From: Arthonia radiata | Taxonomy: Eukaryota; Ascomycota; Arthoniomycetes; Arthoniales; Arthoniaceae | Direction of reading: 5' to 3' | Assembly (NCBI GenBank): GCA_002989075.1 | Contig: PSQN01000005.1 | Location: 1,377,241-1,441,240, forward strand | DNA length: 64,000 nucleotides | Shown here: one piece after another, positions 1-61,912 of the stretch | Numbering within the stretch: position 1 is the first letter of the stretch | Layout: every line of letters begins with the position of its first letter | Notes under the pieces: generated by a model | Told to the model about the DNA's origin: nothing | What the model saw: the letters and a program-made list of their open reading frames with translations, nothing else | Databases searched by the model: none | Program-made: the position numbers and the translations under genes

Positions 1-590
1 GGTCGTCGATAAGTAATACACCCTTTTAGGTTAATTTTAAACGAAATTCTACCTTATAGTACGACGTAGGTGTAACTACGGCAAACTTAGAACGAGCATT
101 TAAAATTTTATAATATAAAGAAGTAGTTTATAACTACCTCTGTTAACAGTTACAGTAGAATTTAGAAAGAATAAGAGTATAAGCTAATAAGTTATAGTCT
201 GTAGAACCAGACCTTAAGGAGGGGGATACAGTTTACCTTCGTTAGAAATACGTTAAAACTAAACGACCTTGCAACAAGTTAGACTATACAAAACTCGGAC
301 TATTTAAAATTTCTAAGGTACTTGGACTAGTTACCTTTAGATTAAAACTACTACAAGCAATATACATATACAACGTCTTTTATAAATTACTCCTAAAACT
401 AGCATTAAAGGATGTACTACGACTAAAACCCATCGAACTATTAGACAAGAACTAAGAACTAGAATATAAAGTTAAATAAATCCTTATATATCGCCAATAA
501 GGTAGGATACGTAAGTATCTTATTAAATAAAAAGGATATTTGGAAATAGAGAACATATAGGAACTAATTAAGAACTTGTTTTATTGCTAG
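1..590 (+). pseudogene. 3' end of a chromovirus pol (integrase C-terminus plus chromodomain), element E0
   Basis: Reading one frame through scattered TAG/TAA codons gives a Ty3/gypsy integrase tail. Seen: the GDxVYLR core followed by KTKRP.NKLDYTKLGPFKI-like residues, the VFY..LL block, then a chromodomain-like stretch (YKVK.IL.YR...RKYLIK.KGY) ending at TAG 588-590. In-frame stops sit where Trp or Gln is expected, for example the Trp of the chromodomain WKGY motif, as RIP produces. The 5' part lies outside the window. It is clearly a different, more diverged element than E1/E3/E4/E5. Non-functional. Confidence 0.8.
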
Positions 591-1136
591 CAACTGCTAA
601 AATACTATTAGAGCTAGTGTTAGAAACAACATCAAAACCACGAACCTTCCCGGAAGTCTTAGAAGAATTAAGACTAATAGAACGTAAAGCATTGTCTTAA
701 CTATTAGTAGTAAAACCGGTACCACCTAAATCCGATAAATCGAAAGCAACGTCTTCTGTAGCGAAACGCTTAGGAACGCCAATAGACATACTCTCAGCTA
801 AGTTCTACCGAAACAATATCTCCTCCTTACAAGTAAATATCTTACTTTACCGACTCTTAGCTTTAATAGTCTCTGTAAATATCTCTACTAACTTTCTCTT
901 TAATAACTTCTTCTTTCTCTTTAATAGGTTAATTTGCTTAGAAAGGTTGTTAACTGCGAGAGTATTAGAGAGGAAGGTAAGGGACCTAAGTTATATTACG
1001 AATACTCGTCCTCGTTAAGAAGGGCGTCGCATTTTTCTAGATAAGAGCTTTGAGTATAGCGCATACAAGAGCGAGACAGGAAAGAAGCTACGAGGCACCT
1101 TATGCTAACGCAGGAATAGCTAGAACATGGAGGCAT
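568..1136 (-). pseudogene. E0 antisense Cys-rich/coiled-coil accessory gene remnant
   Basis: On the strand opposite E0 pol, an ATG at 1136 opens a frame starting MPPCSSY. Six positions are spaced C-x2-Y-x6-C-x9-C-x2-Y-x8-C; the two Tyr are probably RIP-mutated Cys (TGY to TAY). The spacing is within the Zn2Cys6 range. Downstream, in a shifted frame, a lysine-rich heptad-like segment follows (LLKRKKKLLKRKLVEIF) and then a Ser/Thr-rich tail, ending at a stop at 568-570 that overlaps the end of pol tail-to-tail. The shift may be an intron: a CTAAT branch-like site and CGCAG acceptor lie between the two parts, but no donor fits the frame. The open frame may extend upstream of the ATG. Same position, order and domain layout as in E1/E3/E4/E5. 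Confidence 0.6.
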
Positions 1137-1286
1137 ATTGGAAGCGGCGCGAGATTCGATTTAGTTGGCACGTCTATTACGAAGCTTAGCACGTATTAGA
1201 AGTAGACGACTAGATATAGTTAAAGACTTACAGATTAGAACAATAGCGAGACACCGTACTTATAGTTAATTGAGAACGACTTAACC

Positions 1287-20423: not shown

Positions 20424-20998
20424 ATATTTAAAGTTAAGAAGGTTTCTAACGCTAACAAAGCGCTTAAGATTAATACTGTTCTTACTAAAGTCTATAGTTA
20501 AGAGATGCCTTCGTATTTCTATTGCTCTTATATAGATAAGAAGTATATTCTAAAGTCTAGAAAGATATCGTATTTTATGTATATTCGCGATAAGAAGTTG
20601 TATAACGTTCGTCTATTGTTAGAGGACGGTTAGTTTCTATCTTACGTCTAATTTTTATATTAGTTTAACTTATTTTAGCTTAAAGTATCTATTCTTAGTA
20701 CTTATAGGTATCGGATACCCTTTAAAGATAACGTAAGCGTTTAGCGAAAGAGAAGAAAGTTGTTTGTACAGCAAAAAGGTAGCGCGAAGCTATTAAAGCG
20801 GCGGTTATAGATTTAAAGAAGAAGCTTAAAAAGTTGCGCGTCTAAACGTAAAATAAAATAGATTAGAATAATATATTGTTCGAGGAAGAATAGCTAACGG
20901 CTATATTTAATAGTAATATTATAGATATACTAAGTAGTCTAAGTATAGATTTTTGTAATAATCTATATCTAGAGTTAGGTAGTAGGCTACTAATATAG
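20424..20998 (+). pseudogene. E3 copy of the antisense Zn2Cys6-spaced accessory gene
   Basis: Exon 1 is 20424-20628 (205 nt; start codon now ATA), the intron 20629-20678 (50 nt, gttagt...taacttattttag), and exon 2 20679-20998 (320 nt), ending at the same TAG as the other copies. Several of the six Cys codons are RIPed to Tyr. Coordinates reproduce exactly the exon lengths of E4 and E5, which supports the gene model even though this copy is dead. See the E4 copy at 46432 for the description of the protein. Confidence 0.75.
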
Positions 20999-30289: not shown

Positions 30290-30861
30290 TTATATTAGTA
30301 GTCTACTATCTAACTTTAGATATAGATTATTACAGAGATTTATACTTAAACTACTTAGTATGTCTACAATATTACTATTAGATATAGCCGCTAGCTATTC
30401 TTTCTTAAATAATATATTGTTTTAATTTATTTTGTTCTATACTTAGACGTACAATTTTTTAAGCTTCTTTTTTAAACTAACAACCGCCGCTTTAATAGCT
30501 TTGCGCTACTTTTTCGCTATACAAACAATTTTATTTTCTTCTATTAAACGCTTATACTGCCTCTAAAGGGCGTCTAATACTTATAAGTACTAAGAATAGA
30601 TACTCTAAGCTAAATAAGTTAAAACTAGCTAAACGAACGTAAAGATAGGAACTAACTATCCTTTAACGATAAATGAACGTTACACAACTTCTTATTGCAA
30701 ATATATACAAAGTACGATAAATTTCTAGACTTTAAGATATACTTCTTACTTAAATAAGAGCAATAAAAATATAGAAGTATCTTTTAACTATAAACTTTAG
30801 TAAAGATAATATTAATCTTAAGCGCTTTATTAGCGTTAAAGGCCTTCTTAACTTTAAGTAT
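30290..30861 (-). pseudogene. E1 copy of the antisense Zn2Cys6-spaced accessory gene
   Basis: Exon 1 is 30861-30657 (205 nt, start codon now ATA), the intron 30656-30610 (47 nt, gttagt...acttatttag), and exon 2 30609-30290 (320 nt, stop TAA/TAG). Exon lengths equal those of the other three copies; only the intron is 3 nt shorter. Cys codons are partly RIPed. Confidence 0.73.
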
Positions 30862-33386: not shown

Positions 33387-34117
33387 TCACCCTAAGGTCC
33401 GGAACGACAAAGTCGACGCTAATCTCGAAATGGACAGCCTCTTAGCGTCTACGTCAGGATAGGATGCCTGCCGTCGGTAAGATACACATAAATGAGAACC
33501 TCGTGTGGCACTACAAGTCCAGCGATAATGTCAACAGTTGCTTGAATAGCTCGCTTGCGCTCTAACAGTCCGCAGAGAAATTCAAACGCCTGGGCTATAT
33601 GGGATGTTCAACGTTGTAGGCGTCTCCGCAGGCGGCATCCCTTCCTGCTCTGCACGGGAAAACTAGCGCAGAAACGTTACGGAGCGGCCAATGACCAAAG
33701 CCTGCGCTTCTTCTTCATCACCCACGCGCGTCCAAGAGATGACCTCCCTTCAGCGTCCAGTGTCCAGTGTTCGGTCAAGGCATCCCTGCTCGTGCTGCCG
33801 TCTTACACAATAACGATGCTCGGCTCGGAACGTGCTAGCTTGAGGCTTAGAGCTGCCGGTTTGCTATTTTTTCGACACATTGGTGACGGTGTCCCCTGGC
33901 TCAGCTGTAGCTCCTATCTTCCTCGATGCTGCAGCCTTGGTGGTTACAGCGCTGCCGGATCTCAGCAAACACACTACAGTGGCCTAGAGCTGGCCTCAAC
34001 AAGTGCCAGTAATGACGATGCAGGCGCGGGGCTAGCTCGACGATATCATGACATCCTCGCCGAACTTGCTGCACGTTGATACATTGGTCCCTGCTGGTCA
34101 AGCCCCTTTTGGCGATC
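33387..34117. other. Upstream region of the Zn2Cys6 gene, no confident gene
   Basis: Normal base composition. A plus-strand frame of 174 codons (33555-34079) and a minus-strand frame (33901-34215) are open, but neither shows a recognisable domain. I treat the stretch as promoter/5' UTR of the regulator starting at 34118, leaving open a lineage-specific exon. Confidence 0.45.
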
Positions 34118-36555: not shown

Positions 36556-37311
36556 ATGTCCTCCTCTCACAAACCCCTCATCCTCATCACCGGCGCCAAC
36601 CAAGGCCTAGGCTACCACACAGCGCAACAGCTCGCTTCTTCCGGTTCCTATCACGTCCTCCTCGGCAGCCGCTCCTCTGAAAAGGGCGCCGCAGCCGTCC
36701 AATCTCTCATCAACGACGCCTCACACTCAATCCCAACCGACGCCCTGACTCCTCTCACCATCGACATCACCTCTGACGCCTCCATCACTGCCGCTGCCTC
36801 CGAAGTACAAGCCCAGCACGGCCACCTCGACATCCTCATCAACAACGCCGGCATCTTTCTTCCCGGCACCAGCCGCGAAGACTACACCACCGTCTTCAAC
36901 GCTAATGTCTTTGGCGCCGCCGCCGTGACCGAGGCGTTTCTGCCTCTCCTCCGCACGTCCACATACGCGGACCGCCGCATCGTGAATATCAGTAGCGGGC
37001 TCGGGCTGCTCGCACTCGCCCTCAGCGACAGGCCGTATAATGCGACGGACGTGCCTGCGATAGTCTACCGGACCAGCAAGGCGGCATTGAACATGCTCAC
37101 GGTGACTCAGGCGAAGCTGTTTGAGGGCGAGGGGATCAGTGTGGTGTGTTGCTCGCCGGGGCACTGTCAGACTGCGATGAATGGGTATACGGGGACGAAG
37201 ACGGCGGAAGACGGCGCGAAGTGTATTGCCAGAGCTGCAACGGAGGGGAAGGGGGCGGATGTGACGGGGACGTACGTGAGTGACGAGGGAGAGGGCGGGC
37301 TGGGTTGGTGA
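36556..37311 (+). CDS. Short-chain dehydrogenase/reductase (classical SDR, carbonyl-reductase-like)
   Basis: Single exon, 251 aa, ATG in good context (caccATG). A Rossmann-fold NAD(P)-dependent oxidoreductase with all classical SDR signatures: TGANQGLG at residues 12-19 (cofactor loop), Asp70 of the DIT adenine-site motif, NNAG at 96-99, Asn117, the VNISSG strand with catalytic Ser146/147, YRTSK with Tyr171 and Lys175, and a C-SPG-H-T-AMNG motif after strand 6. Arg39 after strand 2 (GSRSSEKG) suggests NADP(H) preference. The length is normal. No targeting signal, so probably cytosolic. The ILITGANQGLGY / VVCCSPGHCQTAMNG pattern is that of carbonyl-reductase-like fungal SDRs; the substrate cannot be told. 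Convergent with the RA-PH gene (223 bp between stops). Confidence 0.93.
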   Translation: MSSSHKPLILITGANQGLGYHTAQQLASSGSYHVLLGSRSSEKGAAAVQSLINDASHSIPTDALTPLTIDITSDASITAAASEVQAQHGHLDILINNAGIFLPGTSREDYTTVFNANVFGAAAVTEAFLPLLRTSTYADRRIVNISSGLGLLALALSDRPYNATDVPAIVYRTSKAALNMLTVTQAKLFEGEGISVVCCSPGHCQTAMNGYTGTKTAEDGAKCIARAATEGKGADVTGTYVSDEGEGGLGW

Positions 37312-37534
37312 TGGATTGGTGATAGGGGTGTGGAGCTTGAGCGTGTGTGGTTTTGTAGAAGGTGGACTTGAAGGCCTGAAATCTGGCGATATGCCTGGAT
37401 GTCATGGCTTGACTCAGACGTGGCCTTTGGACCTGCTGTGCAAGCTCACTCTAAGAGCTTGGTCGTCTTAACCTGTATGCAAGCCCATCGAGATCCGAGC
37501 CGCTTAAGATAGCTGTAGCGCTTGTCCATGAGTA

Positions 37535-40258
37535 TTACGCTGCTTCACCATAGGCAACGGTGCGTTCTTCTGCCCTGCTGCGATCCCACTTCAGACCTGC
37601 AGGCCCCTCACTGAAGTGCTCCTTGCCCTGCTTTTGCACCTGGTCCAGCAAGCTTCCTGCTTGGAAGCCCATGCCCATCGCGCTTTGCCGCCACGCGTTA
37701 TCGACCCTGGTCCCGCCTCCAGATCTTTTCACACTCTTTCCACGCGCGAGATTGTTCATACCATTGGGGCTTTCTGCACTGCTTCCATTCGCAGCACTGG
37801 TCGTTGGCCGCTTTACCGTGTTGGTGCGTCTTTGCCAGTCAGTGCTCGGCGGCACAGGCACCGCCTCTTCCGGGCTGGTCGCAGCGTCCACGAGACCGTT
37901 TGCTCCGATGGCGTCTGGCAGATGTCCTTTCCCCCTGGTCGCATATTGCGGGGGCTCTCTATATTGCGGTGTCAGATCAACCAAGGGCTTGATCGGTCTC
38001 CGCTGAGAGCTCGAGCGCTTGAGCGTCGGGTCTGAGGAGGTGTTGAGGCCTGTGTTATCGATGGATCTACGTCGTAGAGGTTCAAGCGTATGAGACGGTC
38101 CGGCGGTAAAGGCGTTGAGCTGACGGTCACCATCGCGAGCCTGCGCTTCGGCTTGGCGTTTCGAGTAAGTGCGTCCGAGAAGGCCAGTGGGTGCGAAAGC
38201 TGCCTCGTCGGATGGCGAAGTGGGCTTTGATTCGGCATGTGCTGTAGTCGAGTCATTGTTCCTCGTAGAAAGATGTGCAGGAAAGGCCGATGGCGGAGCG
38301 TTTCTACGTTCGCCAGAAGCGCGTGTCTGGCCAGTGGCAAAGCTGAAGCCCTGTCCTCGCGTGCCGGAGAACGAGCGCGAGCGTCTACGTGAGCCGCCAG
38401 CAGGAGTCCCGCCATTCTCATTTGACGTATCGAAGCCATCAAGGTCGATCAAGGGCTTGAAGGATCCAATTTGATAGTGTGAATCATTACTTGCTACGCG
38501 ACCGTGCATGTGGGCGTCGCCATTAGATGCGTTGCGGTTAGCCGTATTGTTCGACACCCTTCGCTCGTGGGCATCCGGCTTCGTCGCCGTCTTCTGACCT
38601 TCACCTAAGACATTGACAAGATACCAGCTACGCCAACTCTGGACGGCGCAGTAGAACGAGGAAGCAGCTTTCTTGTCGTTCGAGCAGAAGAAGTGTACGA
38701 AGCTCTCCATGCTCATGAATAGGTTGCTCTTCTGTTGCGACTTGATCGCAAAGCAGTGCTTCTTCGGCGGCCGGATCTTCCGCGCAAGCTGCTTGGGCAT
38801 AGGCGTATAGATGTCGAAGTCAGAGAGATGGCAGACGTTGGTCTGATCGCTCTGCTTTGCCCCATGCTTTTTCGCCACAGTGACTTGACCGTCTTGGCGC
38901 AGGGTGATCCATCGTTTGTCCCACTTGCCTGGTCGTTGAGAGTAGCTGAGCTGGCAGGTGAATTCTTCTGGCTGTGCGGATGGCACGCTCGACGCTTCCA
39001 GCTCATGATCTTGGCCACCTGTTGCAGATGGGACGAGCGCAAGGCTGTTCTGTCGATCATCGTCCCAAGAATTGATGACATCGCGGACGTGCTCATATTT
39101 GCGCAGAGGCCGCTGGACACCGACCTTGCCGAAATTCTCCATCAAGACGGAGGAGCGAGGGTCGATGTTTCCGCCGAGGCAGTTCGCTGCTGAGCGCAAG
39201 AGCTGTATGGGCGTCGTAGTCGGCGTCACCGGCAAGCAAATCGAGCCACCTTGAGCGTCGATCTGCACCTGACGATCTCCTGCATTGACAGCTGAGACAG
39301 GCGCGTCGATACCTCGGGAGGCATTGGGAGGAGCAGGTTGGTCTTGAAAGGGCGTCGAGTACGCAAGGGGTCTCGATGGGTGTTGAGTAGTAGCATTGTG
39401 TGCTTGGGGTGCTGTTTCGCCGCGCTTGCGTTTGAACATGCCAAAGAGCTCTCTCGATCCTGCAGACTTCACACCCTGTTCGAGTTGCGCGGCAGAGGAC
39501 TGACCATGCCTCTCCCAACTATTCTGTCTACCATTGTGATGGTCGTCTCTGTCATGTCTGCTGCGTGACAATTGCTGTCGCTGTCGCGCAATGCTCTCTT
39601 GCGCCTGGCGCTTTGCCTCTTCCTCCTGCAAACGCTTTGCTTCGGTAGCCTCCTCTGCATCACGCTGTCTTGACTCATCCACCTGACGTTGTCGAACCTT
39701 CTCCCGTTCTTTCTGCGCCGCTAATGTCTCCTTGAGCTTGCGCTGCCTCGCCGCTTCTTTTTGCATCAGCCGCTTGGCGTCTAACCGGGCGCGCTCGTCT
39801 GGGCTGGCGATCTGCTCGGGGCGGAGAGCATCGCGTGAGGTCTTGGTGCGAACCGGTAAAGCGCTGTCTGGCTGTAGTCGAGGACTTGCAGCGTGCGGCG
39901 GGGGGGAAGGGCGTGAACATTCTTCCTGCCCAGCCTGCGCAGCTTGCGCAGCCTGCGAGCGTTTCAGAGGTGCTGGATCACCATTGGCCAGGCGAGGAGG
40001 CTGATCGGGTTGCCCCGCGCGACTGAATGCAATCTGTGCAGCCGCATTCGTAGGAAGAGCGGGGTTGCTGGTAGTATTTGCCTTTGTGCGGCGGTAGCGA
40101 GAACGACTGCGCTGAATGCTGTTGACCTCCGTGGGAGCTGGCCCAGCAAAAGACGATGGTGGGACCGTTGACGGAGCGCTTGATTGCGGACCAGCTTTCT
40201 GGCGCGCGGAGCGGTAACGGGATAGATTCTGTGTTGCCTCGGGCATAGGTACTGCCAT
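37535..40258 (-). CDS. RA-domain and PH-domain protein (fungal signalling/scaffold protein)
   Basis: 907 aa, single exon. The open frame continues upstream to a TTG codon at 40519, but the first in-frame ATG is 40258 (MAVPMPEATQNLSRYRSAR), taken as start. Domains: disordered Pro/Ser/Arg-rich N-terminus; charged coiled coil ~154-231 (DERARLDAKRLMQKEAARQ...); short ELFGMFKRKRGE motif ~270-281; Ras-association/ubiquitin-like domain ~329-410 (ICLPVTPTTTPIQLLRSAANCL); PH domain ~431-545 (WDKRWITLRQDGQVTVAKK ... FYCAVQSWRSWYLVN); long disordered Ser/Arg-rich tail. The RA-PH tandem recalls the Grb7/MRL arrangement of animals; such proteins bind small GTPases and phosphoinositides at membranes, which I infer for this one. 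Conserved across Pezizomycotina by style, so a core gene. Confidence 0.88.
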   Translation of the reverse strand: MAVPMPEATQNLSRYRSARQKAGPQSSAPSTVPPSSFAGPAPTEVNSIQRSRSRYRRTKANTTSNPALPTNAAAQIAFSRAGQPDQPPRLANGDPAPLKRSQAAQAAQAGQEECSRPSPPPHAASPRLQPDSALPVRTKTSRDALRPEQIASPDERARLDAKRLMQKEAARQRKLKETLAAQKEREKVRQRQVDESRQRDAEEATEAKRLQEEEAKRQAQESIARQRQQLSRSRHDRDDHHNGRQNSWERHGQSSAAQLEQGVKSAGSRELFGMFKRKRGETAPQAHNATTQHPSRPLAYSTPFQDQPAPPNASRGIDAPVSAVNAGDRQVQIDAQGGSICLPVTPTTTPIQLLRSAANCLGGNIDPRSSVLMENFGKVGVQRPLRKYEHVRDVINSWDDDRQNSLALVPSATGGQDHELEASSVPSAQPEEFTCQLSYSQRPGKWDKRWITLRQDGQVTVAKKHGAKQSDQTNVCHLSDFDIYTPMPKQLARKIRPPKKHCFAIKSQQKSNLFMSMESFVHFFCSNDKKAASSFYCAVQSWRSWYLVNVLGEGQKTATKPDAHERRVSNNTANRNASNGDAHMHGRVASNDSHYQIGSFKPLIDLDGFDTSNENGGTPAGGSRRRSRSFSGTRGQGFSFATGQTRASGERRNAPPSAFPAHLSTRNNDSTTAHAESKPTSPSDEAAFAPTGLLGRTYSKRQAEAQARDGDRQLNAFTAGPSHTLEPLRRRSIDNTGLNTSSDPTLKRSSSQRRPIKPLVDLTPQYREPPQYATRGKGHLPDAIGANGLVDAATSPEEAVPVPPSTDWQRRTNTVKRPTTSAANGSSAESPNGMNNLARGKSVKRSGGGTRVDNAWRQSAMGMGFQAGSLLDQVQKQGKEHFSEGPAGLKWDRSRAEERTVAYGEAA

Positions 40259-41139
40259 ATGGCGGAACGCTCGCGATTCCAATGGGTTGTGGAGGGCGGA
40301 TACGGGAGTGGGAAATGGCGGGAGCGTCGCGGAGTCGAAGAAGTTCAGCGATGGCCGCTCATGCGTAGAAGTGTGAAGAGTGAGGTAGGAAGTGCTTTTT
40401 GGAGGCGTCGCGAGGTGGAAGAAGTGACTGAGTGGCTTCAAGAGAGCGCGTTTGCTAGAGGCGGCGTGGTGGCAGGGGGTGATACAAGCAAATCGCCGGG
40501 GGCGGAAACGATTGGCCAAGGCGGCGTCTTGTCGCTAGCGTCCGAACCACGCCATAAGATCGCCGTCCTGAAACATTCCCATTCCCTTTCCAATGCGCTG
40601 GTGGCAGAAGAGCTCCTCAGTAGTGTGGAGAGACTGCACGTAGCGAAAGATGACACGAGGTAAATGAATGATCTTGCGCTATATGACAGTACGTAGCAGG
40701 ATCAACCACTCGTCCACAGTGCCGCGAAGACCGCGACCAAAGTCCCTTGTGCGTTGATCCCCCTCTTCCTCGAGTTATCATCACCTCAGCCTGCTGTATG
40801 AGTTCACAAATAGACCGTGTTCAAGCCAGACCCCCAGCGCCACGCTACCCATCGCATCTGCAAGCGGTGCAAAAAATAACGATTCATGGTCGATGCAAGC
40901 GAGGCCGTGTCCATATGCTTGCCAATTCTGCCGTCAAGCCTGTCTCTGCCCGGGTATACAATTCCTTCCCTCTTGGCTCCTGCGCTATGCGAGCATGCAC
41001 CTCATCGCTCCGAACTTGTTGGAAAATGAACTAGAAAATATGTCAATGGCGTACAATTTGGCGTTTCGGGTGGGATGCTGGTAGCTGTGCTGATGTGAAG
41101 TCTGGTACGCTATCAGCGATCTGGCGCTGAAGCACTGCA
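40259..41139. other. Intergenic region, promoter of the RA-PH gene
   Basis: About 880 bp of normal composition. The stretch to 40519 is open in the RA-PH frame but has no ATG. Other small open frames (40259-40663 plus strand, 40747-41034 plus strand) show no domain. I see no separate gene. Confidence 0.55.
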
Positions 41140-43224
41140 TCACTGTGGCGACTTGGAGTTGTTCGCGGCACCGTTGCGACGATTCTCTTCATTGATGTTC
41201 AAGCTGCCAATGCCCGACGACAGGAAGGAGAAAGGATCTGTTGCGTGTCCCTCAAAGCCACCGTAGCCACCGCCATTCGACATGCTTGGTCCCATGGTTG
41301 ACGGTGTCTGGCCGGCGGAAGTGAAAGCGCTCTCAGCGCGGCTATCGAATCCGCCTGACGGTGGAGCACCAGGCGCGTTGAACTGATTGCCCATGGGCGG
41401 GTAGCCGCTAGTTGCCGCACCAAGTCCCGATGGCATGGCATAGCTGCTGGGCGGTGCTCCATATTGCTGGCCGTGGAAGTCACCGGGGGCGCCGTAACCG
41501 GCTGTCGGTGGAGGAAATTGACCGGGTGTACCTGCCATCTGAGGCGCTGGTGGGTGCATGCCATATCCAGAAGGAGGTGCGTTCATGGTTTGTGAGAATG
41601 AGTTGTCAGCAACCAACATCGCGTTCGCACGGCTGGCTCCACAACGCAGACAACTGACGTTCTTAGCGAAGTTATGGTAGCCACAATTTTCTGAGCCACA
41701 CTTCCAGTCACCTGCACGGAATGGGATAATAGCGCCACCACCACCACCACCGCGACCGTGATGTCCGTGGTGCCCGTGGCCATGACCTCCCATCGGACCA
41801 CCCATCATACCATAAGGCCCGTGATTACCGTAGCCATAACCCATGCTGCCGTCATGTCCGCCGCCAGCACCCATCGCAGGATACGAGCATCGGAAACACG
41901 CTGTCCGCCGTTGGAAATTGGAGAATCCGCATGATGGGCAAGTCCAGTCGCCGGGGCGAGGTCGATTCTTGCTGGGTGGAAATGGGGTGAGGATGTCGGC
42001 CGCTCGATCAAGGACTCGAGCAGAAGATGGGGAAACCTCAATGGCCTTCTCATTCAAAGCACGGCCGTTCATACACAAGCTCTCGGCCGCCTGCGGTCAT
42101 CGATTAGCGAAATTTTCGAGGAAGACGGATGTGACTCACCTCTTCGTGCGACGAGAAACAAGCGAAACCTGTGCCGGTTGGCTTATGTTGGTCGGGAGTG
42201 CGCAAAGTCCAAAATGCGATAGGCCGACCGCCGAACTGGGTGAACCAGCTTTCAAGCTCAGACTGCGTGGTATCGTGCGGCAGGCCGCTCATATGCAGAA
42301 CTTTGCTCTTCTCGGTTAGGAAAGCTCGTACGTCAGCGTTTGCATCCAACGGGCGAGATAGGACGTCGGGATGTTTCTCGGGTGGCTGTGATTTCCGAAT
42401 GAGGCCTTTGAGTACACGTGAGAGTGTGATGGCCTCTTCCATAGCACGGCGAGGAGATGCAGGTGCCAACGCCTGGAGGTGAAACGGCAAATTATGCTTT
42501 ATAGGCGCCGACGCCTGCACGGGCTCCACCTCCAGGGCTGCACAGATATTGGAGACGGCGCTTGAGGCGAAGGGCAAAGATTCCGGATGGTACGCCTGCC
42601 ATCTTTGATATTCAGTCCTCAGGTCAAACGTGCGCGAGTGTTGCAAGTACAGCGGCAGCACGACGTGTTTGTCTCTGGCCTCGCGCGGAAGCTGAACTCG
42701 TAGGTCCCACGAGTCTAGTGTCACAAAAGCCCATTGCAACTTCTCGTCACCAAGGTGTCTCTGTTTGAAGGTCTCGAATGCGTGGATGGCTGCTCGGAAA
42801 TCGCCAGCGTTCCGGACATGCTCCCAAGTGAGGGTGGTGAGGCTGGCTAGAGATCGTGTCAATTGCTGTTGTCATAGGCAGGGGAGGTAGGTTTGGCTGA
42901 CTTACTGCACAGGGGAGTGATTGGCGTATTGACGGGCTTGACGAGGACGCTTTCGCGGGCGAGCTGGTTCGGAGTCAGCCACGTGTCGATGCAAGTTCCC
43001 TAGCAAACGGCCAGCGGAGTCGGAGGCGGCACGGAAGGAGCGTTTGCTAGACCAGACGAACGCACCTCATCCAGAGACTTGGCGTCTACCAATATCCAAC
43101 CAATCTCAATCACTTCCGCCGAGTCTTTGGTGACATAGACGCCGTGCTCGTCGCAAGTTGTGGCCACGTGGATGACTATATATCGGTCAAGCTTTTGCCC
43201 GCCTGGCTGTGAGACGGCGGCCAT
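41140..43224 (-). CDS. Nrp1/ARP-type RNA-binding protein: degenerate exonuclease fold, RRM, two RanBP2 zinc fingers
   Basis: Four exons: 43224-43066, 42963-42906, 42846-42140, 42090-41140; introns 102, 59 and 49 nt, all GT-AG with good donors (GTGCGT, GTAAGT, GTGAGT). 624 aa. The N-terminal ~190 residues have an ERI1/3'hExo-like fold (YIVIHVATTCDEHGVYV, IEIGWILVD, PLCTSLTTLTWEHV, TLDSWDL), but the first catalytic D-x-E is H-V-A, so it is probably not an active nuclease. RRM at ~254-330 (KVLHMSGLPHDTT...GTGFACFSSHEEAAESL). RanBP2-type zinc fingers: C359-x2-C362-x10-C373-x2-C376 and C439-x4-C444-x10-C455-x2-C458, separated by a Gly/His-rich linker; the C-terminal part is Pro/Gly/Ala-rich. Matches yeast Nrp1 and the Aspergillus asparagine-rich ARP family, proteins linked to stress-granule RNA. 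Splice sites were chosen because they restore family-conserved blocks. Confidence 0.93.
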
Positions 43225-44480
43225 GACGTGGTGAAAAGTAGGTGGCTGTGTGCTAGGCGCGACTATTCTCGAGTCAAGGCGTGAGAACTTTTAAGGGCAG
43301 AGCAAAGAAGCTGTCCAGAGGAGTCAGCAACTCGAGCAAAAGCCAGAAAGAAAGGAAAAACTCGAGCAGGATGATGAGATAAGGTGTACAAGGGAGTATT
43401 TGCGGTGGGAGGAGGTGGTGCAGTGAGCGAGAGTGGATGGTCGAGTAGTAGCGTGTGCAGGAAAATCATCAGGTTCCGATTGCTTGGCATTCTGAAGAGC
43501 GATCGCCCCGACGACGTCATCCAATTGCTCTGCTTCTTTCCTTCCATCTCAATCAATAATACCTACTCTTTGCATCTGATCCCTCCTATACCGACCCTTT
43601 GTCTCTATCAATACCCTCCTATAATCATGCACTCGTCGCCTCTATGCACGCATGACGGGCAGGCGGTTTGCACGTGCGTCCAAATTTAGGTTGTTGCAAG
43701 TATTGATGCCGAAATGAAGCAAATGACGCTCTGCCGCTTCTGCATCGCGGAATGCCTCCCTTCTTCCGTCGGACAATATCCGCTGCCATGTGCGCCTTGT
43801 AAGTTGTCAGTTCAGGCTGCTGTGATATCGTCCGAGGTGTTGGAGGCTTTGAGATTATCATGCTCGTCGAAGTCAAGCTTGTTGGTCACCCCAAAACCAA
43901 AGGTCGATGATCACTTGGACCGCCAAAAGGACGCCCCAATGAGAAAGCCGTTCCTGTACATCCCCCGTCTCCAGTCATCCACGCTATGTACGTGGTTACA
44001 CTGCAAGCATGGTTCGGGCATCCTCACAGGTGTATGCTGCTCGTTCATCTTGCGCTGTCAATGGCTGCACGTCCGGAGTCTCTCTGGATCAGACGTGCCA
44101 TTGGCCCCAGTCGCGCGTCTCACAGGCGAATGTTGATGGACCGTCAAAGGACATTCCTTTGTACACACTGCCATAGCACACCGCACCCTCGACATAGCAG
44201 TCTGCTATCTGACGTCCGCGTGTGCAAATACGGATCATACATCTCATGGACTTCGGAAATTGTCCACAGTCCAGGACGATATCAGATACAGAGTATGTTT
44301 GAAAGTAGTCTCAGCCCGCTCAGACCCTTGGGCGCCCGTGCGTGTTTACCACGCTATTCCCCTTTAGGAAGTAGACGCCTGAAGGGTCTGAGGCCCGATA
44401 GCAGCTTTTTTAGTCTCATCAACCAAACATTATTCTAATCGTTGAAATTTGATCAAAAAAGCGTGTCAACTAAGTTAACA
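43225..44480. other. Upstream region of the Nrp1-type gene and island edge
   Basis: About 1.25 kb of normal composition up to ~44440, then a rapid fall in GC. Several 80-150 codon frames on both strands lack recognisable content. On the minus strand near 43840-43910 a short frame ends in VTNKLDFDEHDNLKASNTSDDITAA, which could be a terminal exon, but I found no supporting upstream exon. Confidence 0.45.
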
Positions 44481-46431: not shown

Positions 46432-47006
46432 ATGCCTAAAGTTAAGAAAGCCTCTAACGCTAATAAAGCGCTTAAGATTAATACTGTCCTTACTGAGGTC
46501 TATAGTCGAGAGATGCCTCTGTGTTCCCGCTGTACTCTTCTAGACGAGAAGTGTGTTCTAAAGTCTAGAAAGGCATCGTATTTTGTGTATACCCGTAATA
46601 AGAAGTCGTGCGACGTTCGCCTGTCGTTAAAGAATAGTTAGTTCTTATTCTACGTCTATTTTTAATATAAGTCTAACTTATTCTAGCCTAGAGTATTTGT
46701 TCTTAGTACTTGTGGGTATCGGATACTCTTTAGAGGCAACGTAAGCGTTTAGCGGAAGAGAAGAAAGTCGTTTGTAAGGCAAAAAGGCAGCGTAAAGTTA
46801 TTAAAGCGGCGGTTATAGATTTAAAGAAGAAGCTCGAAAGATTACGTATCTAGGCGTAAAACAAAATAAATTAGAATAACATATTGTTCGAAGAAGAATA
46901 GCCGGCGGCTATGTCTAGTAGTAATATTATAGATATACCGAGTAGCCTAAGTATAGATTTTTATAACGATTTGTTCTTAGAATTAGATAGTAGGCTACTA
47001 ATATAG
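46432..47006 (+). pseudogene. Antisense accessory gene of E4: Zn2Cys6-spaced, coiled-coil protein (best start)
   Basis: Exon 1 46432-46636 (ATG intact, 205 nt), intron 46637-46686 (50 nt, GTTAGT...CTAAC...TAG), exon 2 46687-47006 (320 nt); 174 codons. Residues C31, C34, C41, Y50, Y53, C60: with the two Tyr read as RIPed Cys the spacing is C-x2-C-x6-C-x8-C-x2-C-x6-C, that of a binuclear zinc cluster, but the loop after C34 (TLLDEK) is not basic as in typical DNA-binding members. Exon 2 encodes a Lys/Arg/Glu-rich coiled-coil-like segment (RQRKRLAEEKKVVCKAKRQ..., AAVIDLKKKLERL) and a Ser/Asp-rich end. It runs opposite to pol, with 75 nt between the two stops, and its start faces the 3' LTR ~95 bp away, so that LTR could supply its promoter. 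Exon 1 is stop-free; exon 2 has TAG/TAA codons. Function unknown. Confidence 0.72.
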
Positions 47007-54569: not shown

Positions 54570-55041
54570 TGTTACGGGCACCAGCCCCAGACGGCCTAGC
54601 GTGCACCCAAGCATCAACCACCGCCAGTTATCTCAGTCCTACCAGCATTATTCCCGACTAAGCCTACAAACCCGCCGTAGGCATTATCGAACAAGACGGC
54701 TTTGAGAGTCTACGTTCCCTACAAACCCGATATAGGCATTGTCAAAATTGACGGACATAGAGGAACTTCCCTATATACCTTAGATTATATAGCTAAACTA
54801 ATGGCCGACCTTAGAATAAACTTTAGTCTATTAACTTAATATCTAAATACGAGTTCCTTAACTATATTTAGGTAACGTACTTTACCTTCTGTCTACTTTA
54901 GTTAAGCCCCTCTCACCCTCTATAATCTGTCTCGCCTCTCCTGTCTTTTAGTCTCTAGCACACAAGACACCCACTACCAAGGTCAACAAGCACATAAGGT
55001 AAGTGAGCCTTAGTTCGGTCTTCCTAGCGACCGGCGTTACA
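54570..55041 (+). repeat. E5 5' LTR
   Basis: 472 bp. By hand alignment it differs from the 3' LTR at about 34 sites, all transitions, no gaps. The upstream part contains a ~36-bp direct repeat (starts 54664 and 54719, ctacaaacccg...taggcatt). The U3 part is unrelated to the 450-bp LTRs; the last ~290 bp are related. Confidence 0.95.
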
Positions 55042-55043
55042 CT

Positions 55044-55053
55044 TTAACAGACT
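55044..55053 (+). other. Candidate self-priming primer-binding site of E5
   Basis: ttaacagact, two bases after the 5' LTR, is the exact complement of agtctgttaa inside the LTR (61696-61705; RIPed by one base at 54825-54834). This is the arrangement of Tf1/sushi-type chromoviruses, whose mRNA 5' end primes itself. Confidence 0.6.
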
Positions 55054-55083
55054 CGCTACGAAAGTAGAGAAAGCAGATTAATT

Positions 55084-56352
55084 ATATCTACTACTTCGGC
55101 ACCCAACAGCCGCGACGCTGCGGACAGATTAGCCAACAGAATGGCCAGCACGAGTAAGATATCGGACGTTAACACTAAGATAAAAAAAAGTTTCTTAGAT
55201 AAACGTTCCGAAGTTACTTTATTCTTGATACGCCTAGCCGTGTACTTCAGAACTCACAAAGACTAGTTCCCGAACGATACTACTATAGTTCTATTCGCTA
55301 CCTCTTATATAGATAGAGATGCCTACAAGTAGGTCGAGTACTACCTCGACGATTTCTTGTTTACCTCGATAAAGAGCAGGTGCGAGGATACCGACGAGTT
55401 CTTCGCCAGCTTTGCCTTCTTTTAGAAGAAGCTTCGCGAAATCTTTAGATAGACCGACGCTGGACGCGTCGCTACTAGGAAGCTTAGGAACCTTAAGTAG
55501 ATAGGACTAGCAAGCAGGTACGCCGCCGAATTTATATAGTATGCTAATTAAACAGGATAGGACGAGAAACCCCTAATCGAGACCTTTTACGAAGGACTCA
55601 AGGATCATGTTAAGGAAATAATCTATATTCGTGGAGAAAAGTTTAATAATCTCGATAACTTTATACAACGAGCAAAGGAGATCGACGACAGCAACTTCGA
55701 AAGACAAATAGAAAAGAAGAGCAATCCCACTAACAGGTTCTATAGAACAAAGAATCGAGCAAACTTACGACAAGACCGAGGCGATCCAATAAAGTTAGAT
55801 TTTACAAAGCCTCGAGGGAAACTAAACAACCAAGAAAGAGAACACAGAATAAAGAACAAGCTATGCTTATATTGCGGAAAACCAGGGCATCAAGTTAAAG
55901 AATGCCGCTCCAAGAAATAACAGTTCAATAGTACCGGCAGAAACGGGCATAACAATCGATCTTAGAAACCCCGTCTCCCACGACAACAGTTCAATATAAC
56001 TATTCAGACACAGGAACACTACGGTCGCGATAAGGCAATAGAATTACTAACAGCCTTCTCCGACCGCTAGCACATAAACTCAACTAGGGACCGTCTACTT
56101 CAAGCGTTTGGACTCCCACCTAAGATCAACCAGAACTGGTGTAAGTACGTTACCGAACTAACCAAGGAGCAGAAGGACACCTACTGGGGTGCCTTCTGTA
56201 ATCAGGAAGACACTCGTTCAGTTACTTCCGATAAGAAGCACAACGAACTAAACTTGTTTAATTTACACAAAAACTGGGATACAGACAGTGAGTCATGGGA
56301 AGAAACAAAGGAACGACAAATAAAACAGAAACAACAAGACCCACAGGACTGA
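55084..56352 (+). pseudogene. E5 gag with CCHC zinc knuckle
   Basis: Starts at 55084 with ATA (ATG in E4), continues STTSAPNSRDAADRL..., and ends at TGA 56350-56352: 422 codons. The retrotransposon-gag region (EYYLDDFLFT...FYEGLKDHVKEII) is followed by an intact zinc knuckle CLYCGKPGHQVKEC at ~55864-55905. In-frame TAG/TAA replace conserved Trp/Gln (for example after RTHKD). Gag forms the particle and binds the RNA. Pol follows in another frame, so a frameshift or processing step was needed in the active ancestor. Confidence 0.85.
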
Positions 56353-59300
56353 AACAACATTAACCGCACTATTCCGAGGCATTAGGTATAGAGTACCGTT
56401 ACACTACACGATACACTATCCTAGACCGCGTGCTACAATAACAATTGCACGATCCACGAATCCGACAAACTAGGGTCAGGATGGTGGCCGAAGAAACCGA
56501 CATCTCTCAAACAAGGTTCGACACAAGAACTAGGCCTCACCCGAGGACGATTTAGGTTACCTTACCTAGAAACTCAAGGGGAATCTAAGGAAGAACAGAC
56601 CGTAGAAGCTAAGCAAGATAGCAGCTACGATGCGTTACAGGCAAGACAACGACTCGAAGACGAAAACATAGATTCTGATGGTACGGAATCCTCGCTCGAG
56701 GACGACACTAACTAGGAAGAACAAACCCCAATCCGTTGGGAAGGAATAATATAGAGACTTTGTTAGTTGGCCTTCTACGATAGGAAGTTGAGCGCTAATA
56801 GAGACATTAACAATATTCCGGGATACATTTACTCACACCTACGACGACTAGTAGACTACCTTATTAGGGGTCTAGAATTGCGCAGTTAGTACTAATATCT
56901 TCGACTAACAATGTACAACCTACAGACACGACGAGTTTTAACTAGCGATGGTTGCATAATTAAAGCAGGGATCGTAAACGATAAACTAGACGTTATAATA
57001 AAAGCAGTACTAGGATACCCTACACAGGAATTCTTACAACAAATTAACCGACAATAGGTTCCGGTACCCAAAATACTCCAGAACGTATACGATTAACAGG
57101 GAAAAGACTAGGCCGACTGCTTCGAGGGCAGCAGTACCGGCCCGTCTAACGGTTAGACCCTCTAGGAGTCTAGCTCTGCGCAAGCTCGGCTGCCTATAAA
57201 ACATACTTATATACTCGGGCAACAGTAAACCACAGAAATATTAAAGTTATAATCGATTTAGGCGCAACAGGCAACTTTATCTTAATACGCTGCGTTGAGG
57301 AGTGCCAGATACAAACACGAAAGAAGAAATTACCCTACGTACTGTCCGGATTTCAAGGGGCAGAGGGAAGAGTCGACTACAAGACTTCGCCAATAGGTAT
57401 AATAATTGGGGACTATTAAGAAGAAATTACTTATAATATCGTAGATATTAACTAGCACTACGCTGTGCTAGGTATACCTTAGTTGTAACAACATAACTTA
57501 GAAGTAAATTAGAAAACTAAGAAACTCCTCTTTACTAGGTGCAAGCACTCTAAGCAAGAGTCGTTCTGCGGAACAAATACCCTACAAGCTAATTTTAGTA
57601 GTAAGAATAAGGAGCGCGATAAGGAACTTACGCGGGTCAGCACCACTACACTCCGACATTCAGACATCCTACGAGAGGAGTCTAACGTAGTATCTCGTCT
57701 GTAGCCAACTACACGCAAGTATAAACAAGAGACGACTGCACGCTAACGATTCTATACGACGACAAGTACTCAGTTAATTACTAAGATACCCGAGGAATAC
57801 GATTAATTCTGACACCTGTTTAAAGAAGCTAAGCCGGACTCAGCTCTCCTAGAACACAAACCGTGGGATCACACAATACCTTTACAAGAAGGCAAAATGC
57901 CAATATTCGGTCTAATATACTCTCTATTAGAAGTAGAAAATTAAGCGCTTCGTAATTATTTTAACGAGAACCTTAAGAAAGGATTTATCCGGAAATTAAC
58001 ATTACTAGCCGGATACCCGATACTCTTTGTATCCAAGAAGAATAGTAAACTGCGACTCTACGTAGATTATAGACAACTGAACGGGGTAACTATTAAGAAT
58101 CGATACCCTTTACTACGTATCGACGAAATAACAGACCAATTGTATAACACGCAATAGTTTACTAAGTTTGACCTACGAGGAGCATACAACCTAATCCGTA
58201 TAAAGGAGGGCGAAGAATAGAAAACGGCCTTCCGCACCAGACACGGACTTTTTAAGTATTGCGTTATGCCCTTCGGGCTAACGAACGCTCCAGCATTATT
58301 TCAGGAACTAATTAACAACACACTCAGCGATTACCTAGACATATTTACAACTACTTATCTAAACGATATCCTAGTGTACAGCCGTACACTAGAAGAATAT
58401 AAGGAATATATTAAGAAGGTATTAGAAAGATTGGCGCGTACCGATTTACGAATCGATATCGAGAAAACTTAGTTTTACCAACAATCCGTCGAATTTCTTA
58501 GATTCATAATTACCGAGCACGGTCTTTAAATAGAAGATTCGAAGATCTAATCCGTCCTAACCTGGCCTATACCAAAGAATGTAAAACAATTACAACAGTT
58601 TCTTAGTTTTGCCAACTACTACAGGCGATAGATATCCAACTTTGGCCGAATTACAGCACCGCTGTCTTAACAGACGAAACAATCGATAGGATTCTCCTGG
58701 ACGCAAAAAGAACAATTAGCATTTAAAGAACTTAAAGAAGCTTTTAAGATTGGGCCTATACTAGCAATATTTGACCCCAACCTACCGATCATTATAGAAA
58801 CAGACGCGTCAGACTATGCAATTGGAGCATGTATAAGTTAAAACAACAAAGAAGGAAAGCTTAGACCAGTAGCTTTCTACTTAAGGAAAATGTTACCCAC
58901 AGAACAGAACTACGACATTTACGACAAAGAGCTTTTAGCCATTATAGCAGCATTCGAGACATAGCGAGCTTACCTAGAAGGAGCAAACTATACGATTATA
59001 GTATATATAGACCATAAAAACCTAACTTATTTCGCGACAACAAAGAAACTCAACCGCAGATAAGTTAGATGGTCAGAAACTATGGCTCTATACAACTTTA
59101 TTATCACCTACAAGAAGGGTTCCAAAAACGATAGGGCCGACGCTCTAAGCCGACGACCGGATTACCTTAATAACAAGGAACACGTCGAGCATGCAATATT
59201 CCGAGAACACAATAACGAGATTAGATACAATTAATTGGCTATAACAACCGAGTTTGTTATTGAACTAGACAGCCGAATCCCAGATATCCTGAACGACCCT

Positions 59301-60686
59301 AAAACCTACCAAGAAAACGAGAAACGACACCTAGGATTAACTAAGAACAACAAGGGATATTACGAATTCTAAGGCAAAATCTACGTCCCAAGGAATCTAA
59401 TTCGGAACATTATTAGTGACTTCTACGATAACCCAACTAAAGGACATAAAGGCATCGATAATACCATAGAAAAGATTACGAGAACCTACTATATCCCGAG
59501 GATCCGACACCACGTCGAGAATTATATCCGAGAATGCGACATATACGCAAGAACCAAGCACCCGAGGCATTCACTATACGGTGAACTACAACTACTAGAG
59601 ACACCCGAGAGACTATGGCACACAGTCTTACTAAACTTTATTACTAAGTTACTAACTTCCAAGGATCTATTTACAGGAGTAGCTTACGACGCTATTCTGG
59701 TTATATGCGACAAACTAACAAAGTACGCGTACTTCGTACCTTACAAGGAAGCTAGCAACTCAGAACAGTTAGTATATACCTTCCTTCGGATTATCTTAGC
59801 AAACTATGGCCAACCCCAAAGAATTGTCTTAGACAGAGACCGGAAATTCGTCTTACGGTTTTGGACATCCCTGATGCAACAGCTAGGAACAAAACAAAAA
59901 ATATTAATATCATTCTATCCACAAACAGACAGACAGACAGAACGAACAAATTAAACACTAGAACAGTATCTCCGGGCATACATCAACTACCAGCAGAACG
60001 ACTAGGTACAGTTACTACCAGTAGCGCAAGCAGCGCACAACGATACAAAGAACGATATAACCAAGATAACTCCGTTCTACGTCTTATATAGCTATCACCC
60101 TCTTTAGGGAAGACAACTACAAAATACCACAGAGAACGAATTAGCTACACGAATAGCTACGAACATAAAATACCTGCACCAGCAGTTAAAGTTTAACAGC
60201 GAGTTTATTAACGAACGAACAAGAAAGTAGTATAACAAGTTAAGAACAACCTTAAACACAAGCATAAAAGAGGGGGGAAGAGCTTACTTGCTTATAAGAA
60301 ACTTAAAAACTATCAGACTAAGCAAAAAACTCGACTACACTAAGACAGAACCGTTTAAAATCTTACAGCAATTAGGACTTATAACATTTAAACTCGAACT
60401 CCCGAAGATAATAAGAATACATCCTGTATTTTACGTAGCGCTGTTGGAACCAGCCTACTTCCGAGAAGCAGAACGACCTAACCCAGAAATCCTTTCTGAC
60501 AATTAAGAACCTAAGTATGAAGTCGAAGCAATTCGAGCTCATAGACAACACCGAGACAAACGACAGTATCTTATAAAGTAGAAAGGATATCCCGAACACG
60601 AAAATCAATGGGAACCGGAACGAAACCTAACCAACTATAAAGACACCATTCGACGATACTGGGACTAGAATATTAATCGGTCGTAG
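56353..60686 (+). pseudogene. E5 pol: protease, RT, RNase H, integrase, chromodomain
   Basis: One frame, stops only TAG/TAA. Order: acidic N-terminal region; aspartic protease with IIDLGATGNFI at 57249-57281 (catalytic DSG now DLG, a TCA to TTA change); reverse transcriptase 57990-58530 with [14 protein letters not shown] and YLNDILVYS (58356-58382); RNase H 58795-59165 ([38 protein letters not shown]); integrase 59440-60130 (HKGIDNT..., DRDRKFVLRFW, the second Cys of the zinc site RIPed to Tyr); KLSKKLDY/HPVFYVALLEP block; chromodomain ~60515-60640 (KYEVEAIRAHR...YLIK-KGYPEHENQWEPERNL). The chromodomain places it among chromoviruses, which target heterochromatin. Confidence 0.88.
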
Positions 60687-60759
60687 CAGCACTAACACCC
60701 TAATCCACTACCTAGTGTGCCTCGCTAGCACCCAGGTCACCCTCGAACGAACCAGCCTA

Positions 60760-61335
60760 CTATGTTATAGGACTACTACCCAACACCGGGTAGGGGTCAC
60801 TCCGAAAGTCAACGGATAACCCGCTCGGACATTTAAATGTATTACCACCAGCCATCGACGCAGCAAATTCTTTTTGCTCCAACAACTTATCCCGAGCTAA
60901 CTTTGCTGCTGCCCGCGCACGAGTCTTCTTAACCTCCTTTTTCAACTTCCGAACCTCAAATCGGTCACGCTGTACAGCCGCAACCAACGCTGCTGCCTGA
61001 GCCTTTGACGCACGCAATTGGCTCTTCGCGCGCTGAAGGGCAGCCGACTAAGAGGAATATTGAGAATGAACCGAACGCGCTACAATTAAGTTAGTTCCAG
61101 TCACCACAAAAGGACACTAAAAAGGCATACCATCTGCCATCGACACCCGTAAATTACAACTCTTTCTATCTCGAGTACACACCGAACACATCGCCTTCCC
61201 GAACTGAACCACACACCTTTCCTTAGTCGACACATATCTAGAACAAGGAGGCATCTCGATACCGTAGGCTTCAATTAACAGGTATTAGCTGTACTTTTTA
61301 TCAGGACCCGCAGCAACGGACTTTATGCGAGGCAT
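60760..61335 (-). pseudogene. Antisense accessory gene of E5: Zn2Cys6-spaced, coiled-coil protein, divergent allele
   Basis: Exon 1 61335-61131 (205 nt, ATG intact: MPRIKSVAAGPDKKYS), intron 61130-61080 (51 nt, GTATGC...CTAAC...TAG), exon 2 61079-60760 (320 nt, TAG); 174 codons, the same exon lengths as in E1/E3/E4. C31, Y34, C41, C50, C53, C60 occupy exactly the cluster positions of E4; Y34 is a RIPed Cys. Shared anchors are EMP.CSR, the TR..KSC.(L/V)R.S end of exon 1, and SLSIDF-like/GLSVDF near the C-terminus; the rest is diverged. Exon 2 has a long Ala/Lys/Arg coiled coil (SQLRASKAQAAALVAAVQRD, VRKLKKEVKKTRARAAAKLA). An 85-codon stop-free stretch (61017-60762) remains. Stops are two in exon 1/exon 2 plus one inside the intron. 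The ORF faces the 3' LTR (105 bp away). Function unknown. Confidence 0.75.
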
Positions 61336-61424
61336 AGCGACTTACAGATTAGTTACGAAAGGAGGAACGAAACGTAACTTATAGGTGTTTAAAAGGCTAA
61401 GGGTCAATCGAGGACGATTTAACT

Positions 61425-61440
61425 AGAAGAGGGGGGATTG
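61425..61440 (+). other. E5 polypurine tract
   Basis: agaagaggggggattg abuts the 3' LTR; it fixes plus-strand orientation for E5. The equivalents in E1, E3 and E4 read aaagagg(g/a)(g/a)accttg. Confidence 0.85.
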
Positions 61441-61912
61441 TGTTACGGGCACCAGCCCCAGACGGCCTAGCGTGCACCCAAGCATTAACCACCGCCAGTC
61501 ATCTTAGCCCTACCAGCATCATTCCCGACTAAGCCTATAAACCTGCCGTAGGCATTATCGGACAAGACGGCTTTGAGAGCCTACGTTCCCTACAAACCCG
61601 ATATAGGCATTGTTAGGATTAACGGACACAGAGGAACTTCCCTATGTACCTTAGATTATATAGCCAGACTAATGGCCGACCTTAGAATAGACTTTAGTCT
61701 GTTAACTTAACATCTAAATACAAGTTTCTTAACTATATTTAGGTAACGTGCTTTACCTTCTGTCTACTTTAGTCAAGCCCCTCTTACCCTCTGTGATCTG
61801 TCTCGCCTCTCCTGTCTTTTAGTCTCTAGCACACGAGACACCCACCACCAAGGTCGACAAGCACACAAGGCAAGTGAGCCTTAGTTCGGTCCTCCCAGCG
61901 ACCGGCGTTACA
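61441..61912 (+). repeat. E5 3' LTR
   Basis: 472 bp, TGTTACGG...GGCGTTACA, followed by ACTAC. Slightly less RIPed than the 5' LTR; it retains agtctgttaa, the complement of the primer-binding site. Confidence 0.95.

What the first reader, a model, noticed from the sequence alone, without database searches (positions are those of the whole stretch)
60760..61335. Conserved two-exon antisense gene in chromoviruses encoding a Zn2Cys6-spaced coiled-coil protein
Seen: in four elements (E1 30861-30290, E3 20424-20998, E4 46432-47006, E5 61335-60760) the strand opposite pol holds a gene with exon lengths exactly 205 and 320 nt and a 47-51-nt GT-CTAAC-AG intron in phase 1. E5 is strongly diverged from the others in this stretch, yet exon lengths, intron position and cysteine positions 31/34/41/50/53/60 are identical, which implies protein-level constraint rather than chance. 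The gene ends tail-to-tail with pol and starts ~100 bp from the 3' LTR. The spacing C-x2-C-x6-C-x8-C-x2-C-x6-C is that of fungal binuclear zinc clusters, although the usual basic loop is missing. Inference: an accessory protein made from an antisense transcript driven by the LTR, perhaps regulating the element, binding its RNA/DNA or countering host silencing. I know of no described function; similar Cys-rich hypothetical proteins may already sit unnamed in fungal databases.
Basis: partly seen in the sequence, partly recalled or inferred. Interest (0 to 1): 0.88.

Follow-up and report, generated by a model that had tools for sequence, protein, structure and literature searches.

The report
Antisense regulator-like gene in fungal retrotransposons
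Mobile elements in this fungal genome carry, on their back strand, a small spliced gene for a cysteine-rich protein, and in the copies compared that gene is always inherited together with the neighbouring control region of the element, as if protein and switch belonged together.

Summary
The antisense gene is real, but its 3' end was misread. E5 (54570-61912, flanked by ACTAC) is a full-length, RIP-damaged chromovirus. The gene starts at 61335(-) and has a 205-nt exon and a 51-nt intron. It runs past a damage-made TAG (60760) to codon 204, a stop in 60 of 62 copies, so the protein is about 203 aa. A RIP-proof test (transversions only) gives K0/K4 0.43-0.48 for this frame and 0.75-2.35 for the other five. 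All six cysteine codons are TGY or TAY in 62 of 62 copies.

New here: (1) E5- and E4-type elements share pol and R-U5 but differ by about 25% transversions across one block: gene, spacer and U3. Gene type and U3 type agree in 62 of 62 copies, while pol haplotypes mix between types. One pair from a second family repeats the pattern; a third cassette's LTR could not be matched. (2) Similar six-cysteine antisense genes lie in a second chromovirus family (HMM E=4e-4) and probably a third.

[quoted passage not shown] I found no report linking them. Best reading: a self-specific regulator of its own U3. Expression and DNA binding are untested.

The parts
54570..61912 (+). element E5, full-length chromovirus copy damaged by RIP; LTRs 54570-55041 and 61441-61912 (472 nt each); 5-bp duplication ACTAC on both sides
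   Evidence: LTR comparison and flanks
61131..61335 (-). antisense gene exon 1, 205 nt, with the six-cysteine stretch
61080..61130 (-). 51-nt phase-1 intron (GTATGC...CTAAC...TAG)
60516..60665 (+). chromodomain at the end of pol (PF00385, 53.3 bits)
   Evidence: converted from C11:1437756-1437905
60693..60695 (+). shared pol stop; pol and the antisense gene overlap by 23 nt at their 3' ends
61441..61650 (+). U3 part of the 3' LTR, belongs to the exchanged block
61651..61912 (+). R-U5 part of the 3' LTR, not exchanged (no transversion against E4 over 61651-61890)
46432..47006 (+). E4 copy of the gene (type 4), 7 stops, tail shifted by an indel
20424..20998 (+). E3 copy of the gene (type 4), ATG changed to ATA, 11 stops
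30290..30861 (-). E1 copy of the gene (type 4), ATG changed to ATA
560..1250 (-). antisense gene of another chromovirus family at the left end of the window, approximate limits; cysteine stretch 1136-1029

Best explanation
The gene is a conserved third gene of chromoviruses in this genome. A spliced antisense mRNA, started in the U3/spacer region, makes a protein of about 203 aa with two zinc-binding knuckles (C-x2-C-x6-C-x8-C-x2-C-x6-C) and a coiled-coil-like second half. Most likely the protein works as a dimer that binds sequences in its own U3 and controls transcription or silencing of its own kind of element. I think activation or anti-silencing a little more likely than repression, because a target found only in its own kind keeps the benefit with that kind. 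Gene and U3 are inherited as one block. When two different element RNAs are packaged together, the first strand transfer at R can go to the other RNA, and a later switch back inside the gene or pol then moves U3 and gene together onto another pol. Shown: gene, intron, purifying selection, cysteine conservation, block exchange, gene-U3 linkage. Inferred: transcription, zinc and DNA binding, dimer, action on U3, sign of the effect.
For: Purifying selection in this frame only. Second positions change least and third most between types, and again for a third cassette's exon 1 against type 5: 0.323, 0.149, 0.414. Six cysteines kept in 372 of 372 cells as TGY/TAY, while only 20 of 68 exon-1 columns keep the same majority residue in both types. 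Length changes among type-4 copies fall mostly in the intron: 42 gaps, against 4 in exon 1 and 3 in exon 2. Exchange block = gene codons 1 to about 174 + spacer + U3, with pol, gene tail and R-U5 unchanged. Gene type = U3 type in 62 of 62. Pol haplotypes occur with both cassettes (RRYYR 21 and 22, YYRRY 8 and 5). The same pol/gene-U3/R-U5 pattern in one pair of a second family. Zn_clus-like score. A long inverted repeat in the type-4 U3 (score 18-20, 0 of 200 shuffles, 0 of 92 control segments) and long direct repeats in the U3 side of the window-left element (score 35, 0 of 200, 0 of 92).
Against: Gene and U3 are neighbours, and the two cassettes are too different inside for template switching, so 62 of 62 linkage is expected even without a functional tie. 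The type-5 U3 direct repeat (score 12-13) is not special: 5 of 92 control segments reach 12. The L079 inverted repeat (16) is reached by 7 of 200 shuffles and 1 of 92 controls. The part of U3 seen for the third cassette shows no notable repeat, and its LTR could not be matched to either type, R-U5 included. Pfam cut-off not reached. The predicted structure is poor (pLDDT 57) and finds no fold match. No homologue in the protein collection or PDB. No RNA data.
Confidence: 0.4

Rival explanations
1. The protein acts on RNA or particles (chaperone, packaging or export, like small retroviral accessory proteins) and has nothing to do with U3. The block is exchanged as a unit only because strand transfer at R and low internal homology make it so.
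For: Adjacency and the R-U5/U3 boundary explain the block without function. Double C-x2-C knuckles can also bind RNA (recalled). Only some U3s show unusual repeats.
Against: Does not explain why gene and U3 diverge this far together (about 25% transversions) on a nearly identical pol, nor why one pair from a second family does the same.
Confidence: 0.3
2. The protein is a repressor of its own U3 (copy-number control or superinfection immunity, as with phage repressor and operator). New gene-U3 pairs escape the resident copies.
For: Matched gene-U3 pairs on a shared backbone are the pattern of phage immunity regions (recalled).
Against: Sign of regulation unknown. RIP-damaged residents make little intact repressor: 1 of 62 copies has no stop in the first 174 codons.
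Confidence: 0.17
3. The gene only adapts to host factors (for example escape from host silencing or RNAi); U3 follows by hitchhiking.
For: Fast protein change with a few fixed sites: 20 of 68 exon-1 columns shared.
Against: K0/K4 is below 1 overall; no sign of positive selection was tested site by site.
Confidence: 0.1
4. Chance open frame opposite non-coding sequence.
For: All window copies are broken. No family in Pfam above cut-off.
Against: Frame-specific constraint, intron, fixed cysteine codons.
Confidence: 0.03

Closest known systems
brtn, antisense gene of Boty-like elements (Zhao et al. 2011, Virology; not held, title seen in reference lists; described in passages of PMC8365987, PMC7264820, PMC4227169)
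   Same: Antisense gene between pol and 3' LTR of a fungal chromodomain element; present in many copies; function unknown. A Monilinia transcript matches truncated Pol and BRTN (63% identity, E=2e-29; one passage of PMC5987419).
   Different: I could not compare sequences: the BRTN sequence is in none of my collections. Whether it has the six cysteines, the intron or the U3 linkage is unknown to me.
crapaud of Podospora (PMC10787394; abstract, sections 8 and 12 and passages read)
   Same: Chromodomain element with diverged U3 subfamilies (14), conserved R-U5, and internal regions that do not follow the LTR subfamilies. The authors suggest template switching and promoter selection and leave the cause open.
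   Different: The main text has no mention of 'antisense'. The figure legend shows two ORFs. No gene linked to U3 type is reported in what I read.
VANC anti-silencing proteins of VANDAL elements (PMC5735166, PMC10398659; abstracts)
   Same: Element-encoded protein and its non-coding target diversify together; targets often form tandem repeats.
   Different: DNA transposons of plants. No sequence similarity was tested or claimed. Here the tie to the target is only genetic linkage.
Retand antisense ORFs with TRP28 (PMC11963269; passages)
   Same: Antisense ORFs between pol and 3' LTR, suggested to bind DNA.
   Different: Plant non-chromoviruses; the TRP28 domain (PF04195) was not found here.

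Membership tests
Chromovirus (Ty3/Gypsy with chromodomain) | Chromodomain at the C-terminus of integrase | tested here: met
   PF00385 at window 60516-60665, 53.3 bits, cut-off 25.1; integrase zinc domain PF17921 in the same pol
Antisense additional ORF between pol and 3' LTR (brtn type) | Position and orientation | tested here: met
Antisense additional ORF between pol and 3' LTR (brtn type) | Sequence homology with BRTN | not testable with these tools
   paper not held; no fungal homologue returned by the protein search
Fungal Zn(2)-Cys(6) binuclear cluster (PF00172) | Cysteine spacing C-x2-C-x6-C-x5-12-C-x2-C-x6-8-C (spacing rule recalled) | tested here: met
   C-x2-C-x6-C-x8-C-x2-C-x6-C in L078
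Fungal Zn(2)-Cys(6) binuclear cluster (PF00172) | Pfam curated cut-off, 21 bits | tested here: not met
   best copy L078 exon 1: 20.3 bits, E=6e-4; so not filed as a member
Fungal Zn(2)-Cys(6) binuclear cluster (PF00172) | Fold with two zinc ions; DNA binding | tested here: inconclusive
   model pLDDT 56.8, no PDB match at E<=0.001
VANC-like self-specific anti-silencing factor | Protein and target diversify together | tested here: inconclusive
   gene and U3 linked in 62 of 62, also expected from adjacency
VANC-like self-specific anti-silencing factor | Binding to own target and loss of silencing | not testable with these tools
   needs bench work
Retand TRP28 antisense ORF | PF04195 domain | tested here: not met
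   not among Pfam matches

The most novel reading that the evidence does not exclude
Fungal chromoviruses carry exchangeable specificity cassettes: an antisense gene for a six-cysteine DNA-binding regulator together with the U3 it recognises, swapped as one unit between pol backbones, much as phages swap repressor and operator. Such cassettes would make elements with the same pol regulatory strangers to each other and would explain the unexplained U3 subfamilies of elements such as crapaud.
Probability: 0.3. Interest if true: 0.87.

Novelty: new variant of a known kind. Interest (0 to 1): 0.66.

Why it matters
The function of antisense genes in LTR retrotransposons is an open question, and the cause of U3 subfamilies in fungal elements was left open by the crapaud study. 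If gene and U3 are a matched pair, both questions become one that can be tested by binding and reporter assays, and by checking in Podospora whether each U3 subfamily has its own antisense allele. It would also show a eukaryotic retroelement using a matched regulator-target cassette.

Tried and rejected
Protein search with the one copy that has no stop (726 candidates, none at E<=10) and with the antisense protein of a fourth chromovirus family (4077 candidates, none): no homologue returned, and no fungal protein either, so the absence says little. PDB sequence search: 3 weak matches, E 0.83-4.5. Structure prediction of exon 1 from 12 rows: pLDDT 56.8, not used; Foldseek best E 1.1. The Zhao 2011 paper is not held. 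I considered that the shared stop at codon 204 might also be damage: one copy, L042, reads CGA there, but 8 of 30 type-5 copies read TGA and 52 of 62 TAA, so I keep it as the real stop with some doubt. L079 (third family) was not found by the exon-1 HMM at E<=10, and the window-left gene only at E=0.0079; both rest on cysteine spacing, position and the following frame, judged by eye. No coiled-coil predictor was run; Pfam gives only sub-threshold hits to coiled-coil families. The two type sets (30 loci each) are the best matches of two searches (291 and 191 matches; 150 candidates scored in each), not a random sample. Of the 20 other element stretches that I asked for, 8 were fetched, most of them shortened; 8 further stretches downstream of pol hits were fetched. 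No antisense six-cysteine gene was seen in L080 and L081 (L081 looks deleted there) or in L085, L086, L087 and L089-L092; L087 and L090 gave partial scores to the type-5 gene. Nine paper searches ran; none showed a link between an antisense gene and U3 type in fungi. Several of these lists were capped.

Full report
THE ELEMENT. The window lies in an unnamed fungal genome of 33.5 Mb in 16 contigs. E5 is a full-length element: two 472-nt LTRs at 54570-55041 and 61441-61912 with ACTAC on both sides. Its pol contains an integrase zinc domain and ends with a chromodomain at 60516-60665. The copies in the window are heavily changed by C-to-T/G-to-A mutations, as RIP makes them; GC falls to 22-30% in the most damaged copies.

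THE GENE. On the opposite strand, a frame opens at 61335, 105 bp from the 3' LTR. Exon 1 has 205 nt and the intron 51 nt. The frame goes on to codon 204, which is a stop in 60 of 62 distinct copies (TAA 52, TGA 8); L042 reads CGA and E4 is out of frame. The protein is about 203 aa, and its stop overlaps the pol stop by 23 nt. All window copies are broken; one of the 62 copies has no stop in the first 174 codons and none up to codon 203. The intron is supported by donor GT in 58 of 62, acceptor AG in 61 of 62, and by length changes that fall mostly in it (42 gaps, against 4 in exon 1 and 3 in exon 2 among type-4 copies); a CTRAY branch motif is seen in 43 of 62. Exon ends were fixed from the gene ends in these counts.

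CONSTRAINT. RIP makes transitions only, so I counted transversions. Between E5-type and E4-type copies they hit codon positions 1, 2 and 3 at 0.289, 0.178 and 0.357 in exon 1, and at 0.297, 0.263 and 0.345 in exon 2 (960 pairs). The ratio of non-degenerate to fully degenerate sites, K0/K4, is 0.48 over 81 pairs of the less damaged copies and 0.43 in the frame table; the bootstrap over codons gives 0-0.80 with P(>=1)=0.007; the five other frames give 0.75-2.35. Each of the six cysteine codons is TGY or TAY in all 62 copies, whereas only 20 of 68 exon-1 columns keep the same majority residue in both types. A third type of the gene, in L088, keeps exon 1 of 205 nt, a 51-nt intron and the same six positions, and matches the exon-1 HMM at E=2.4e-12.

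THE BLOCK. E5 and E4 differ in pol almost only by transitions: transversions are 0-1.6% per 250-nt window, except 6% at 56069-56318. From about 60800 to 61600 identity is about 50-57% with 22-26% transversions. The gene tail, codons 175-203, is again nearly free of transversions (1-4.5%). In the LTR, 61651-61890 has none, while the U3 part has 8-32%. So one block, gene codons 1-174 plus spacer plus U3, differs between the types. Of 62 distinct copies, 30 of 30 with the type-5 gene have the type-5 U3, and 32 of 32 with the type-4 gene have the type-4 U3. In the adjoining pol, only one of 272 variable purine/pyrimidine columns is nearly fixed between types (28 of 30 against 31 of 32, right beside the breakpoint), and pol haplotypes occur with both cassettes: block RRYYR 21 and 22 copies, YYRRY 8 and 5, others 1 and 5; sites 670/671 YR 20 and 10, RY 10 and 21, RR 0 and 1. 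All four combinations exist, so cassettes and pol backbones have been exchanged at least once after both existed.

OTHER FAMILIES. The window's left end has an antisense gene at about 1250-560(-) with spacing C-x2-C-x6-C-x9-C-x2-C-x8-C (C or Y), as in L079. Between these two copies pol has 0-3% transversions, the gene and the stretch behind it 9-35%, and the next stretch (1564-1863) 0-2%. This is the same pattern in another family, from one pair and with LTR limits not determined. L082 holds a similar two-exon gene opposite another chromovirus (exon-1 HMM E=4e-4). Pol C-terminal amino-acid identity to E5 is 41% for the L079 element, 37% for the L082 element and 29% for the L077 element (damaged copies with X at stops). 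L077, a GC-50% element, has a different three-exon antisense gene with C-x2-C groups that does not match the exon-1 HMM. The third cassette type (L088) sits on E-type pol (L095, transversions 0-4%), but its LTR could not be aligned to E5 or E4, R-U5 included; this is unexplained.

U3 SIGNALS. The type-4 U3 has an inverted repeat (score 18 and 20 in two copies, 0 of 200 dinucleotide shuffles each; none of 92 control segments reaches 18). The window-left element has direct repeats (35; 0 of 200; 0 of 92). The type-5 direct repeat (12-13) is matched by 5 of 92 controls, and the L079 inverted repeat (16) by 7 of 200 shuffles and 1 of 92 controls. Support for binding sites is therefore uneven.

WHAT IT DOES. 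A protein with two zinc-type knuckles and a helical second half, made in antisense from the edge of the LTR and never separated from its U3, fits best with a dimeric DNA-binding regulator of its own U3. That is inference: I have no RNA, binding or usable structure data (pLDDT 57). The linkage itself is also expected from position and from how template switching works, which is why I hold this at 0.4.

WHAT IS KNOWN. Antisense genes between pol and the 3' LTR are known in plants and in Boty (brtn) (PMC7264820, first third of the text and passages; PMC8365987, PMC4227169, PMC5987419, passages). Diverged U3 halves with conserved R-U5, and internal regions that do not follow LTR subfamilies, are known for crapaud (PMC10787394, abstract, sections 8 and 12, passages). 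Sequence-specific element proteins that diversify with tandem-repeat targets are known for VANDAL elements (PMC5735166, PMC10398659, abstracts). In nine searches I saw no paper that ties a fungal antisense gene to U3 type. I therefore call it a new variant of a known kind.

Noticed in passing
window 1250-560 (-): An antisense six-cysteine gene of another chromovirus family, not mentioned in the finding.
   Followed up: partly
L077 (C2:38600-41100), minus strand 1553-461; L084 (C7:723500-725800): A GC-50% chromovirus with a different three-exon antisense gene (CCRC...KCARC...KCEM); two copies 98% identical, each with single damage stops.
   Followed up: partly
window 56069-56318: A second short patch where E5 and E4 differ by 6% transversions, probably in gag.
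   Followed up: no
just upstream of the antisense ATG in E5, E4 and L088: A shared string TAAGTCGYT directly before the start codon, with GTAAGT in E5 and L088; it could be a start context or a splice signal on either strand.
   Followed up: no
L097/L088 (C13:1205600-1207300): The third cassette's LTR matches neither type, even in R-U5, though its pol does.
   Followed up: partly
window 33500-44400: GC-normal island with host genes between RIPed elements: a Zn2Cys6 gene (34233-35750), a PH-domain gene (40534-37535), RanBP-type zinc-finger and RRM genes (42096-41140, 42871-42104).
   Followed up: no
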